Shown here one piece after another: positions 54,046 to 59,923 of a stretch of 62,380 bases of DNA. Numbering within the stretch: the first letter of the stretch is position 1; every line of letters starts with the position of its first letter. The notes under the pieces are model-generated. The model had not been told where the DNA came from. It was given only the letters and a program-made list of their open reading frames with translations, and ran no database searches. Source of the DNA: Gloeomargarita lithophora Alchichica-D10 (GTDB lineage: Bacteria; Cyanobacteriota; Cyanobacteriia; Gloeomargaritales; Gloeomargaritaceae); the NCBI RefSeq assembly GCF_001870225.1, contig NZ_CP017675.1, positions 2,628,561 to 2,690,940 on the forward strand. Direction: 5' to 3'. The translations under genes were made by a program, and so were the position numbers.

Positions 54046-54372
54046 ATGGGTGCTCTAATGACCGTACTGCTAACGATGGTGATGGTGGTGGTGGGTTGGA
54101 TTCAGCCTGCCCAAGCCGCTGATCTGGCTCACGGGGGCAAAGTGTTTGGTGCCAACTGTGCCGCTTGCCATGCCGGGGGACGGAATGTGGTGGTGGCCAG
54201 TAAATCCCTGAAAAAAACCGACCTGGAAAAATACGGCATGGACTTGGCTGGGATTGTCTATCAAGTCACCAACGGCAAAAATGCCATGCCCGCCTTCAAA
54301 GGCCGTCTGAGTGCCGCTGATATTGAAGATGTGGCCAACTTTGTGGTGGCGCAGGCGGAAAAAGGCTGGTAG
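54046..54372 (+). CDS. petJ: Cytochrome c6
   Basis: Soluble lumenal electron carrier from cytochrome b6f to photosystem I. The 108-residue precursor has a signal peptide cut near 'AQA-ADLAHG'. Heme attachment is 'CAACH' and the Met ligand is in '[11 protein letters not shown]'. A GAGGGG site precedes the ATG by four bases. The mature size (about 84 residues) is normal. No plastocyanin gene is seen in the window. Confidence 0.95.
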
Positions 54373-54401
54373 TTGCCGATCACCGGCGGGGGGTGCATCC
54401 G

Positions 54402-56090
54402 ATGGGTAAGCGACGTTGGGGTTGCCTGCTCGTATTCAGCCTGGGATGGGTTCCCCCCGCTGGGGCACAAAAAACCCCCGACCAGATGCAACTCTGGCGG
54501 CAACCCACCCTCGTGCATCTCACCAGTGGGTATCAGGGGCAATGGCAGTGGCAACAGCGCACCTGGACAACCGTGGCCACCACCCAGGGCACGGGAGTTC
54601 TTGTCCATCCCAACGGCCAGATTTTAACCCTGGCGACCGTTGTTCAAGCCACCGCCCAGGGGGAAGCCTTCGGCAAGCAATTACTCCTAGAAGATTTGGC
54701 ACGCCAGCGGTTGACCCTGTATAACGAAGCCTTTCCCCAGCAAAAAATCCCCCTCACCCCAGCCAACATTCGGGAAGCGGCACTGCGTATCCAACCGGAA
54801 GCCCAACTGGAACAGTTTGAACGTTTTAATGAGGCTTTTTTATCCGGGGGACGGGCAGACCAGTCCTACGGGTTTCGGGTGGCCAAGTACGACCCCCGGC
54901 GCAACCTGGCCCTGGTGACGGTGCAGTTGACCCAGACCCCCACGCTGGTCTTGGGAATGGTGGTTCCCCCCAGTGCTGGGACGACGATTTACGCTTTGGC
55001 GCAACCCAACCCGGAGGTGACCCCGACTCCCACCCGGTACACAGGGACATGGAACGGGCAGGGCATGGCCTTTCCCAATCCCCAGGGGATAGCGGGGGGC
55101 ATTGTGTTTCTGGTCAGCGGCGATATTTTGGGGTTGGCCGCTCCCCAGGGCAATCAAGTCACCCTAATTCCTACGACCACCCTCAACGAATTTCTGCAAA
55201 CAGCGGGGGTCGAAAACCAGGACAGCCCCGTGAATGCCCTCTGGCAGGAGGGGTTAGCGCATTTCTGGCAAGCCCATTACCGCCATGCCCAGCCGGTTTT
55301 GCAAGCCGTCCTCAACCGCTATCCCCAGCATCACAGCGCCCAAACCCTTTTGACCCAGGCGCAAGAACGGATCACCCAGGGGCAAGACCGCTCCCCGGTG
55401 GCCTGGTGGCAAGTGGGGTTGGTGGTGGGCGGAGTGGGTATTTTAATTTTGGGCACCGGGGCAGTGGGGTTGGCGATTTGGCTCAACCGTCGTCCCCGGC
55501 GCGTGCCGCCCGTGCAGGGGATTCCTACTCCTCCCAGTCCAGAAAGTCTGACCATTCCCCTGGCGGGTTTGGATGCAACCGCCCCCGTCACCCCGGCGAC
55601 GATACCTTTGGCGGAAAACCCGCCTCTTGACCCCATAGAAGCCCCACCCACCCGGATGATGGTGCCGCCCCCACTGGAGCCAGAACCCCCCACCCGCATT
55701 GCCATCCCGGAACCGGAAACCCGGATTTTGACCCCGCCCCCCCTGCCCACACCGCCGGTGCCCGCCCCGGCCACAGAAGAATTTCGGCCCAGCCGCTTGG
55801 AATGTATCGCCGGCCCTGCCGAGGGGGAAAGCTTTACCCTGGTGGGCAGTCACTACCTGGGACGGGACCACCAACGCTGTCAGATTGTCATCCCCGACTC
55901 CCAGGTTTCGGGGCAACACGCCGGGATTGAGGTGACCGAAACCCACGTTACCCTGCGGGATTGTGGTTCCACCAATGGCACCTTTATCAATAGCGTTTTG
56001 CACCCCCGCATCACCGAAATCCGCCTCCAAGACCAAGATGTGATCATCCTGGGGCAAAAAGCGACGGTGAAATTCCGGTTCCACGCCTGA
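54402..56090 (+). CDS. FHA-domain membrane protein with degenerate trypsin-like domain
   Basis: A 562-residue protein from ATG 54402 (GTG 54393 possible). After a signal sequence, residues 35-270 look like an HtrA/trypsin fold, with 'GTGVLVHPNGQILTLATVV', 'KYDPRRNLALVTV' and 'GIAGGIVFLVSGDILGL'. At the positions of catalytic His, Asp and Ser it has T, N and A, so it should be inactive. A helical segment (about 275-330) precedes one membrane helix ('VGLVVGGVGILILGTGAVGL'). A Pro-rich linker (about 370-465) and a C-terminal FHA domain follow ('YLGRDHQRC', 'VSGQHAGIE', 'DCGSTNGTFIN'). Confidence 0.75.
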   Translation: MGKRRWGCLLVFSLGWVPPAGAQKTPDQMQLWRQPTLVHLTSGYQGQWQWQQRTWTTVATTQGTGVLVHPNGQILTLATVVQATAQGEAFGKQLLLEDLARQRLTLYNEAFPQQKIPLTPANIREAALRIQPEAQLEQFERFNEAFLSGGRADQSYGFRVAKYDPRRNLALVTVQLTQTPTLVLGMVVPPSAGTTIYALAQPNPEVTPTPTRYTGTWNGQGMAFPNPQGIAGGIVFLVSGDILGLAAPQGNQVTLIPTTTLNEFLQTAGVENQDSPVNALWQEGLAHFWQAHYRHAQPVLQAVLNRYPQHHSAQTLLTQAQERITQGQDRSPVAWWQVGLVVGGVGILILGTGAVGLAIWLNRRPRRVPPVQGIPTPPSPESLTIPLAGLDATAPVTPATIPLAENPPLDPIEAPPTRMMVPPPLEPEPPTRIAIPEPETRILTPPPLPTPPVPAPATEEFRPSRLECIAGPAEGESFTLVGSHYLGRDHQRCQIVIPDSQVSGQHAGIEVTETHVTLRDCGSTNGTFINSVLHPRITEIRLQDQDVIILGQKATVKFRFHA

Positions 56091-56132: not shown

Positions 56133-56588
56133 ATGGCTAAAATTACAGTTGGAATGTCTGCCCCGGATTGGCAACTGCCGGATACCAGCGGGCAATTGGT
56201 CACACTCCAGCAATTTCAGGGGCAGTGGGTGGTGTTGTATTTTTATCCCAAGGATGACACCCCCGGTTGTACCGCCGAAGCCTGTGCCTTCCGGGACAAT
56301 TACGAAGCATTTCAGACCGCCGGGGCAGTGGTAATCGGAGTCAGTGGCGATGACACCCCCAGCCACGAGCGGTTCAAAAGTAAATACAATTTACCGTTTA
56401 TCCTGGTCAGTGATGCCAATAACCAACTGCGGCGCACCTACGGGGTACCGGCGACCTTTGGCCTGATTCCGGGGCGGGTAACCTACGTGATTGACCCGCA
56501 GGGGGTGGTGCGGTTGGTGTTTGACTCCCAGTTTGATTTTCGTGCCCACGTGGACAAAGCCCTGGCGGTGATCAAAGCCACCCCATGA
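56133..56588 (+). CDS. Peroxiredoxin Q (BCP family)
   Basis: Thiol peroxidase of 151 residues. The peroxidatic Cys and a second Cys five residues later lie in 'PGCTAEACAFRD', the atypical 2-Cys PrxQ type. 'PDWQLPDTSG' and 'GVPATFGLIPGRVTYVID' are family features. Its stop overlaps the ATG of the next small gene by four bases. Confidence 0.93.
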   Translation: MAKITVGMSAPDWQLPDTSGQLVTLQQFQGQWVVLYFYPKDDTPGCTAEACAFRDNYEAFQTAGAVVIGVSGDDTPSHERFKSKYNLPFILVSDANNQLRRTYGVPATFGLIPGRVTYVIDPQGVVRLVFDSQFDFRAHVDKALAVIKATP

Positions 56589-58157: not shown

Positions 58158-58997
58158 TTGCCAGAGCTACCGGAAGTTGAGATTATTCGCCGGGGGTTGG
58201 TTAGCCTGACCCCTGGTTTGACCATTGCTGAAGTGGAATTACTCCGCCCGGACTGTGTGGTGGGTGCCGCCCCCGAATTTACCGCCGGTTTGTGCCATCA
58301 AGTCCTCCAAGACTGGCAGAGGCGGGGCAAGTATCTATTGGGCAAATTAAGCAACGGCGGCGGGTGGGTGGTGCATCTGCGGATGACGGGGCAGTTGTTG
58401 TGGTTGACGACCCCCCAACCGGTGACGAAACACACCCGGGCGCGGATTTTTTTCACCGGGGGGCAGGAATTGCGGTTTGTTGACCAGCGCACCTTTGGCC
58501 GTCTGTGGTGGGTAGCACCGGGGCAAGCCTTAACCCAGGTGGTGACGGGGCTGCAGAACCTGGGGCTGGAACCCTGGGATTGTTCAGCGGAAATTTTATA
58601 CCCAAAATGTCAGCGCACCCGCCGAGCGATTAAATCGGCTCTTTTGGATCAAACCTGGATCGCCGGATTGGGGAATATCTACGCCGATGAATGTTTATTT
58701 TTGAGTGGCATTGACCCGCAAACTCCTTGTCAAGATTTATCTGCCCCGCAGGTTGCCCAACTGCACCAGGCCATTGTGCGTGTCCTGGAAACCAGCATCC
58801 AGGCGGGGGGGACGACCTTTGCCCACTTTCGCCATGTGCAGGGGATGAACGGCCATTACCTGGATCAAGCCTGGGTTTATGGGCGGGCGGGACAACCCTG
58901 CCGGGTGTGTGGCACGGCCATTCAACGCCAGAAAATCGCTGGCCGCTCCAGCCATTTTTGCCCCCGGTGTCAACCCAAACGGCTGACCAGGCATTGA
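58158..58997 (+). CDS. mutM: Formamidopyrimidine-DNA glycosylase
   Basis: Base-excision repair enzyme for 8-oxoguanine. The 279-residue product begins 'PELPEVEIIRRGL' after a TTG start at 58158, so the catalytic N-terminal Pro is present. The helix-two-turn-helix has 'AGLGNIYADECLF' and the zinc finger 'CRVCGTAIQRQ' / 'SHFCPRCQ'. It follows psaE by 12 bases. Its 3' end overlaps the convergent cyclase gene by 28 bases. Confidence 0.95.
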   Translation: MPELPEVEIIRRGLVSLTPGLTIAEVELLRPDCVVGAAPEFTAGLCHQVLQDWQRRGKYLLGKLSNGGGWVVHLRMTGQLLWLTTPQPVTKHTRARIFFTGGQELRFVDQRTFGRLWWVAPGQALTQVVTGLQNLGLEPWDCSAEILYPKCQRTRRAIKSALLDQTWIAGLGNIYADECLFLSGIDPQTPCQDLSAPQVAQLHQAIVRVLETSIQAGGTTFAHFRHVQGMNGHYLDQAWVYGRAGQPCRVCGTAIQRQKIAGRSSHFCPRCQPKRLTRH

Positions 58998-59860
58998 TAA
59001 CGAATCCCCTCGATTTCCAGCGTGCCGGGGTGGATGGTGCCCTCCTTTTGCAGGATAAATTCGTCCCGGCGGATATGCACCGGGGTTCCCTCCAGGGGTT
59101 TGACGTGGGTGCCGTTGGCACTTTGATCCACCAGGATAAATTTGCCCCGGCGGAACTCAATGCGAGCGTGCTGGCGGGACACCTGATCCAAGCGAATCAC
59201 CAAATCATTGTCCGTAGCCCGTCCCAGACTCAGGGTATGGTGTTGTTCGTCCAGGTAATGCACCTGATCCCGAAATTGTAGGCGTAACCGCAGGGCCGCT
59301 GGCGGTTCAACCGGGGGGGTCATGGCGGCTCCCACGATGGTGGCATCGGAGGCGTGGAGCAAAATTTCATAGACTTCAATCGGTTCCTGTTTGCCCCGCA
59401 CCAAGGTACGCTCCACCAACCGTTTTTGCAGAGCCAACCCGGGGTCAATTTGTTGTACCGTATCCACCGGGGTGAGGATTTGGTTGCGTTTGGCGATCTG
59501 CACCATGCGGGCGGCCACATTCACCGCATCCCCAAACACATCCCCGTCCGGTTGTTCGATGACCGAGCCGTGATTAAAGCCCACCTTCAAACCAGAAACC
59601 ACCTTGCGGTTGAGGAAAAATAGGGTCGCCTGGTCTTGCATTTCAAAGGCCGCCTGCGCCGCCAGAGAGGGGTTGGGGAACCGGATCATAATTTCATCCC
59701 CGATGGTTTTGACCACCTGCCCCCGGTACTTTTGCCCTAGCAATTGCAGGAGTTGCAGACAGTCACTCACCAACACCAAGGCCGCCTCATCCCCCAGGGT
59801 TTCATAGAGCTTGGTACTGCCGCTGATGTCAGCAAAAAGAATCGTGGATTCGCTACCCAT
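58970..59860 (-). CDS. Class III adenylate/guanylate cyclase-like protein with C-terminal FHA domain
   Basis: The 296-residue product from ATG 59860 joins a nucleotide cyclase domain (about 5-165) to an FHA domain (about 195-290). Metal-binding Asp lies in 'ILFADISGSTKLYE' and the second in 'KTIGDEIMIRF'; 'GDVFGDAVNVAARM' is the usual late motif. The FHA has 'LSLGRATDNDLVI', 'VSRQHARIE' and 'SANGTHV', suggesting binding of a phospho-Thr protein. Whether it makes cAMP is not certain. Confidence 0.85.
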   Translation of the reverse strand: MGSESTILFADISGSTKLYETLGDEAALVLVSDCLQLLQLLGQKYRGQVVKTIGDEIMIRFPNPSLAAQAAFEMQDQATLFFLNRKVVSGLKVGFNHGSVIEQPDGDVFGDAVNVAARMVQIAKRNQILTPVDTVQQIDPGLALQKRLVERTLVRGKQEPIEVYEILLHASDATIVGAAMTPPVEPPAALRLRLQFRDQVHYLDEQHHTLSLGRATDNDLVIRLDQVSRQHARIEFRRGKFILVDQSANGTHVKPLEGTPVHIRRDEFILQKEGTIHPGTLEIEGIRYQCLVSRLG

Positions 59861-59923
59861 TACCCCACTGGCCACGACTGGTCACAAGTATCCCAGATTA
59901 TCATAGCCCCAAGCGACAGGGGA

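What the first reader, a model, noticed from the sequence alone, without database searches (positions are those of the whole stretch)
54402..56090. Trypsin-like domain with all three catalytic residues replaced, fused through a membrane helix to an FHA domain
The N-terminal domain follows the HtrA pattern, but at the positions of catalytic His, Asp and Ser it has Thr ('LATVV'), Asn ('RRNLALV') and Ala ('GIAGG'). A membrane helix and a Pro-rich linker then lead to an intact FHA domain. This looks like a dead protease used as an extracytoplasmic sensor or scaffold that signals to a cytosolic phospho-Thr partner. The layout (periplasmic pseudo-protease, TM, FHA) is not one I know by name.
Basis: partly seen in the sequence, partly recalled or inferred. 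Interest (0 to 1): 0.6.

Follow-up and report, generated by a model that had tools for sequence, protein, structure and literature searches.

The report
Dead HtrA-like protease joined to FHA
A cyanobacterial membrane protein carries, outside the cell membrane, a trypsin-shaped domain that has lost all three catalytic residues, and, inside the cell, a phosphothreonine-reading FHA domain; it is the degenerate member of a widespread family whose other members keep the protease intact and usually, in cyanobacteria, sit next to a membrane kinase gene, so it is probably a signalling receptor or scaffold rather than an enzyme.

Summary
The ORF at 54402-56090 (+, 562 aa) encodes a signal peptide, a trypsin/HtrA-fold domain, a TPR-like helical unit, one membrane helix, a 33% Pro linker and an intact FHA domain. 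Alignment puts T79, N168 and A231 exactly at the His, Asp and Ser columns. The model (pLDDT 91.5) matches HtrA proteases at Z about 23.

The same order with an intact triad occurs in other cyanobacteria, Acidobacteriota and Myxococcota, and an HMM of those relatives, built without this genus, still finds this protein (E 2e-37). (2) All four same-genus orthologues lack the triad, but T/N/A is not conserved (also T/N/T and S/S/N); two other genomes of the genus lack the gene. (3) dN/dS is about 0.2, so it is maintained, not a pseudogene. (4) Triad residues were lost at least three times in the family. (5) In 11 of 17 other cyanobacterial loci the gene directly precedes a Ser/Thr kinase gene.

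Best reading: a pseudoprotease ectodomain used as a binding or sensing part, coupled through the membrane to FHA recognition of a phosphorylated partner, probably a Hanks-type kinase. The partner is not adjacent here and is unproven.

The parts
54402..56090 (+). whole gene, 562 aa; a GTG at 54393 is a possible alternative start
   Evidence: orthologues L002, L003, L004
54402..54467 (+). Sec-type signal peptide, residues 1-22 (KRR, hydrophobic core, AGA|Q)
   Evidence: read from sequence
54468..55211 (+). trypsin/HtrA-fold domain, residues 23-270, catalytically dead
   Evidence: AF2 model; structure matches; HMM of intact relatives
54636..54638 (+). T79 codon at the catalytic His column
54903..54905 (+). 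N168 codon at the catalytic Asp column
55092..55094 (+). A231 codon at the catalytic Ser column
55212..55406 (+). TPR-like helical unit, residues 271-335, shared with the whole family (YREGLxLYWxGDYxxAxxxF)
   Evidence: alignment; helices at model residues 254-303; HMM domain 2
55416..55487 (+). single transmembrane helix, residues about 339-362, then RRPRR
   Evidence: hydropathy
55488..55781 (+). Pro-rich linker, residues 363-460 (33% Pro)
55782..56087 (+). FHA domain, residues 461-562, conserved residues intact
   Evidence: Pfam; conservation
54046..54372 (+). upstream neighbour: c-type (c6-like) cytochrome gene, 29 bp before the ATG; order kept in the genus
56133..56588 (+). downstream neighbour: BCP-type peroxiredoxin, 42 bp after the stop; directly follows the cytochrome gene in two species without this gene

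Best explanation
It is a membrane-anchored pseudoprotease receptor or scaffold. Shown or strongly supported: the protein descends from a trypsin-TPR-TM-FHA family, keeps the fold, TM and FHA, has lost the catalytic triad in all four orthologues known here, and is under purifying selection. Inferred from topology: the trypsin-like and TPR parts face the periplasm or lumen and the FHA faces the cytoplasm. Inferred mechanism: the dead protease domain binds a peptide, protein or other ligand without cutting it; binding changes clustering or availability of the cytosolic FHA, which docks on phosphothreonines of a Hanks-type kinase or its substrate and so links envelope state to phospho-signalling. 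In intact cyanobacterial relatives the partner is probably the Ser/Thr kinase encoded next door; here the partner would be encoded elsewhere among about 22 kinases.
For: HMM built without this genus finds all four orthologues at E 2e-39 to 2e-32 across trypsin and TPR parts. HtrA fold Z 21-23. Triad columns T/N/A, T/N/T, T/N/A, S/S/N. dN/dS 0.19-0.24 in the trypsin part and 0.06-0.27 in FHA. FHA contact residues identical in four orthologues. This FHA matches the FHAs of nine same-layout proteins (52.8-68.6 bits) better than any control FHA from relatives (51.2 bits or less), so the layout looks inherited whole. Kinase gene directly downstream in 11 of 17 cyanobacterial relatives against 21-47 kinases per genome, kept at two triad-less ones (L184, L191). 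Own genome holds about 22 kinases. Precedent: MamO, a degenerate HtrA-type protease with two non-catalytic activities (PMC4794232).
Against: No kinase lies next to this gene; the neighbours are a cytochrome c gene and a peroxiredoxin gene. The gene is absent from two genomes of the genus, so the function is dispensable. No ligand or phospho-partner is known. The kinase link is by gene neighbourhood in relatives, not by interaction.
Confidence: 0.5

Rival explanations
1. Regulatory subunit model: the dead domain forms mixed trimers with, or allosterically controls, an active HtrA-type protease of the same cell, and the FHA ties that control to phosphorylation.
For: The genome holds seven other Trypsin_2 proteins above cut-off, including HtrA-type ones. 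MamO activates MamE-dependent proteolysis (PMC4794232).
Against: No co-located active partner; in relatives the usual neighbour is a kinase, not a protease.
Confidence: 0.2
2. Relic model: the protease domain is only a dispensable leftover or spacer, and the function lies in the membrane-tethered FHA (plus TPR) alone.
For: FHA is better conserved than the trypsin part (84-99% against 67-72% identity between the three closest genomes). Triad substitutes vary freely. The gene is missing in two species.
Against: The trypsin part is still under purifying selection (dN/dS about 0.2), 99 of 248 residues are identical in four orthologues, and a confident fold is predicted.
Confidence: 0.2
3. The domain still catalyses something with a changed active site (other residues or another reaction).
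For: One His (H69), D164 and S42 are conserved in the four orthologues.
Against: H69 lies in the hairpin before the His column, where intact relatives have other residues (N or S in INPNG/ISSDG); the Ser and oxyanion segment is shortened and replaced. No coordinates were available to test geometry.
Confidence: 0.05
4. Artefact: pseudogene or misread low-similarity domain.
For: Trypsin_2 is below Pfam's cut-off.
Against: Orthologues in four genomes with open frames and dN/dS about 0.2; HtrA fold Z 23; HMM E 2e-37.
Confidence: 0.02

Closest known systems
Trypsin_2-TPR-TM-FHA proteins of other cyanobacteria, Acidobacteriota and Myxococcota (no family name in Pfam or NCBIfam; seen here as L005, L032-L049, L065-L072, L078-L091)
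   Same: domain order, TPR-like unit, TM, Pro-rich linker in many, FHA; homologous along the full length
   Different: nearly all have an intact His-Asp-Ser; many cyanobacterial ones precede a Ser/Thr kinase gene; this one has neither
MamO of magnetotactic bacteria (PMC4794232)
   Same: HtrA-type protease domain with a degenerate active site and non-catalytic roles; convergent pseudoproteases in other taxa
   Different: no FHA reported; MamO binds transition metals and activates MamE; no metal site tested here
HhoA/HhoB/HtrA (Deg) proteases of cyanobacteria
   Same: protease fold (HhoA 5t69, Z 22.2)
   Different: active triad and PDZ domain; no FHA; the NCBIfam model scores only 11.6 bits here against a 450-bit cut-off
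Clostridium thermocellum RsgI9 S1C ectodomain
   Same: protease-like ectodomain reported to bind cellulose, on a single-pass membrane signalling protein (PMC12203970); structural match 7sjy, E 5.7e-10
   Different: anti-sigma cytosolic part instead of FHA; different layout
Bacteroides FHA-FHA-trypsin protein NP_811686.1 (PMC2605481)
   Same: FHA and trypsin domains in one protein
   Different: two FHAs in front of the protease; order differs

Membership tests
HtrA/Deg-type S1 serine protease (Trypsin_2, PF13365) | trypsin-like double beta-barrel fold | tested here: met
   model; HtrA1 Z 23.1, rmsd 2.6 over 180 residues
HtrA/Deg-type S1 serine protease (Trypsin_2, PF13365) | His-Asp-Ser catalytic triad | tested here: not met
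   T79/N168/A231; triad also lost in three orthologues
HtrA/Deg-type S1 serine protease (Trypsin_2, PF13365) | score above Pfam cut-off | tested here: not met
   24.0 bits against 27.6
HtrA/Deg-type S1 serine protease (Trypsin_2, PF13365) | C-terminal PDZ domain (HtrA/Deg proper) | tested here: not met
   no PDZ hit; a TPR-like unit follows instead
FHA domain protein (PF00498) | FHA domain with phosphopeptide-contact residues GR..S..H..NG | tested here: met
   65.1 bits; residues identical in four orthologues
FHA domain protein (PF00498) | binds phosphothreonine peptides | not testable with these tools
   needs a binding assay
Trypsin_2-TPR-TM-FHA family (unnamed) | full-length homology and domain order | tested here: met
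   HMM without this genus: E 2.4e-37 over both parts; FHA nearest to same-layout FHAs
Trypsin_2-TPR-TM-FHA family (unnamed) | intact catalytic triad (most members) | tested here: not met
   other members without it: L037, L045, L040
Trypsin_2-TPR-TM-FHA family (unnamed) | adjacent Ser/Thr kinase gene (most cyanobacterial members, not all) | tested here: not met
   neighbours are cytochrome c and peroxiredoxin genes; kinase at 11 of 17 other loci
MamO-type pseudoprotease | sequence match to NCBIfam MamO | tested here: not met
   not among NCBIfam hits for this protein at E up to 10

The most novel reading that the evidence does not exclude
Bacteria have an undescribed transmembrane signalling device: a trypsin-TPR ectodomain joined through the membrane to an FHA domain, working with a Ser/Thr kinase encoded next door, in which proteolysis is optional and was lost several times while sensing and phospho-reading were kept. 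The protein in this window is then a pure receptor form.
Probability: 0.3. Interest if true: 0.65.

Novelty: new variant of a known kind. Interest (0 to 1): 0.45.

Why it matters
Pseudoproteases with HtrA fold are known (MamO), and FHA proteins are common, but I found no description of this layout or of its pairing with a kinase gene in the papers searched (a limited set). If the pairing is functional, it gives a testable route by which Hanks-type kinases of cyanobacteria and other bacteria receive envelope signals, a question that is largely open. The repeated loss of catalysis gives a natural experiment on whether cleavage is needed.

Tried and rejected
Chance or pseudogene: rejected by orthologues and dN/dS. 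Triad moved to other positions: no conserved His other than H69 in the domain. A new fusion made in this genus: rejected, because the layout is shared with other phyla and the FHA is nearest to same-layout FHAs. Exact placement of the genus in the family tree: left open; the stem is 2.23 changes per site and the four rows have odd composition. Alignment A2 with the dead members was too divergent to scan genome contigs, so the scan used intact members; its pattern contains the catalytic His, so His conservation in those loci is by construction, while Asp and Ser are not. Literature searches for FHA with trypsin or pseudoprotease found only other architectures. The VIA list covers only model residues 1-249 (protein residues 23-271), so the TPR-like part was not tested by structure search.

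Full report
Observation. The ORF at 54402-56090 encodes 562 aa. The start is ATG 54402; a GTG three codons upstream (54393) is possible. The quoted motifs are there and the residues are T79, N168 and A231. Pfam gives FHA at 486-551 with 65.1 bits and Trypsin_2 at 63-211 with 24.0 bits, under its cut-off of 27.6.

Structure. An AlphaFold2 model of residues 23-335, made with an alignment of window and genome contigs sequences only, has mean pLDDT 91.5 and pTM 0.87. Foldseek and VIA-align 2 return HtrA-type proteases throughout: HtrA1 Z 23.1 (rmsd 2.6, 180 residues), Legionella DegQ 23.0, Synechocystis HhoA 22.2, DegP 21.5.

Orthologues. In the genus, four of seven genomes have the gene. At the three triad columns they read T/N/A (window), T/N/T (G002), T/N/A (G004) and S/S/N (G001). 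So the loss is conserved but the replacing residues are not; there is no sign that T, N or A themselves are needed. Two further genomes, G003 and G006, have the neighbours YchF, cytochrome c and peroxiredoxin in the same order without this gene; the seventh, G005, is 83% complete and remains open. dN/dS (Nei-Gojobori) is 0.19-0.24 for the trypsin part where dS could be estimated and 0.06-0.27 for FHA (dS is high, so these are rough). The gene is maintained where present.

Relatives outside the genus. A same-class genome (G026, L005) gave the first relative with the same order and an intact triad NAH/KDIAV/GSSGG. With it as query, 16 genomes outside the genus among 388 cyanobacterial genomes gave layout members with FHA, a lower bound (sequences; FHA in frame). 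A scan of genome contigs added Symploca, Acidobacteriota (L067, L068, L070, L072) and Myxococcota (L078, L079, L089, L091) members with FHA; a Chloroflexota (L071) and an Arthrobacter (L092) relative end in a zinc-ribbon-like tail, and Bacillota relatives have no FHA. An HMM of the core built without the genus scores the window protein 126.3 bits (E 2.4e-37), covering the trypsin and the TPR part, whereas other Trypsin_2 proteins of the same genome score 21-99 bits and match the protease part almost only. The FHA of this protein is closer to the FHAs of same-layout proteins with canonical FHA (52.8-68.6 bits) than to the best FHAs of related cyanobacteria (51.2 bits or less). The layout was therefore most likely inherited whole, with the protease active, and the triad was lost on the long stem of this genus (2.23 changes per site).

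Repeated loss. Triad loss also appears in L037 (His deleted, Ser to Ala), L045 (His lost, Asp to Asn, Ser to Ala) and L040 (His to Arg, Asp to Asn, Ser kept). Parsimony on the tree needs three changes.

Kinase neighbour. In 11 of 17 distinct cyanobacterial layout loci (L065, L180-L185, L188, L189, L191, L192; L066 is the same contig as L182 and not counted) the next gene on the same strand is a Hanks-type kinase; it is absent in L179, L186, L190, L193 and L194, and L187 has kinase fragments upstream instead. In most of the kinases examined a hydrophobic helix follows a long linker, with further sequence beyond it. The genomes hold 21-47 kinase matches each, so by my estimate of several thousand genes per genome a given neighbour is a kinase by chance about once in a hundred. 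The two related triad-less loci, L184 (L037) and L191 (L045), keep the kinase gene, although the kinase frame of L184 stops at 282 aa. A kinase is also next to the Kofleriaceae gene L091. In the window there is none; the genome has about 22 kinases elsewhere.

Mechanism. Shown by computation: fold, loss of triad, purifying selection, intact FHA, shared layout. Inferred: N-out, C-in topology from the signal peptide and the positive residues after the TM; ligand binding by the dead domain; FHA docking on a phosphorylated kinase or substrate. MamO shows that a degenerate HtrA-type domain can take non-catalytic roles (PMC4794232), and RsgI9 has a protease-like S1C ectodomain reported to bind cellulose (PMC12203970). 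The regulatory-subunit and relic models remain open.

Identity of the genome. The 3,049,282-base single contig fits what I recall of Gloeomargarita lithophora; this is from memory and was not tested.

Noticed in passing
L200:5067-6359 (-), about G000:C1 2343066-2344358 (same genome, outside the window): A second trypsin-like protein with a degraded triad (NLTSLGG at His, Asp kept, GSQGAP at Ser), directly next to an intact one (L200:3851-5089) on the same strand.
   Followed up: partly
L168 and L170: Empty site: in two species of the genus the cytochrome c and peroxiredoxin genes are neighbours without this gene, about 184 and 65 bp apart.
   Followed up: yes
L065, L180-L185, L188, L189, L191, L192: Conserved gene pair: trypsin-TPR-TM-FHA gene followed by a Hanks-type kinase gene, mostly with a predicted membrane helix.
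   Followed up: partly
58970-59875 (-): Adenylate/guanylate-cyclase-like domain followed by an FHA domain in one protein, near the finding; read from the sequence.
   Followed up: no
L071, L092: Relatives of the same protease-TPR-TM core that end in a zinc-ribbon-like motif instead of FHA, so the cytosolic module is exchanged between phyla.
   Followed up: no
L187 (G312): Layout member that lost His and Asp but kept Ser; kinase-like pieces in several frames upstream suggest a broken kinase gene.
   Followed up: no
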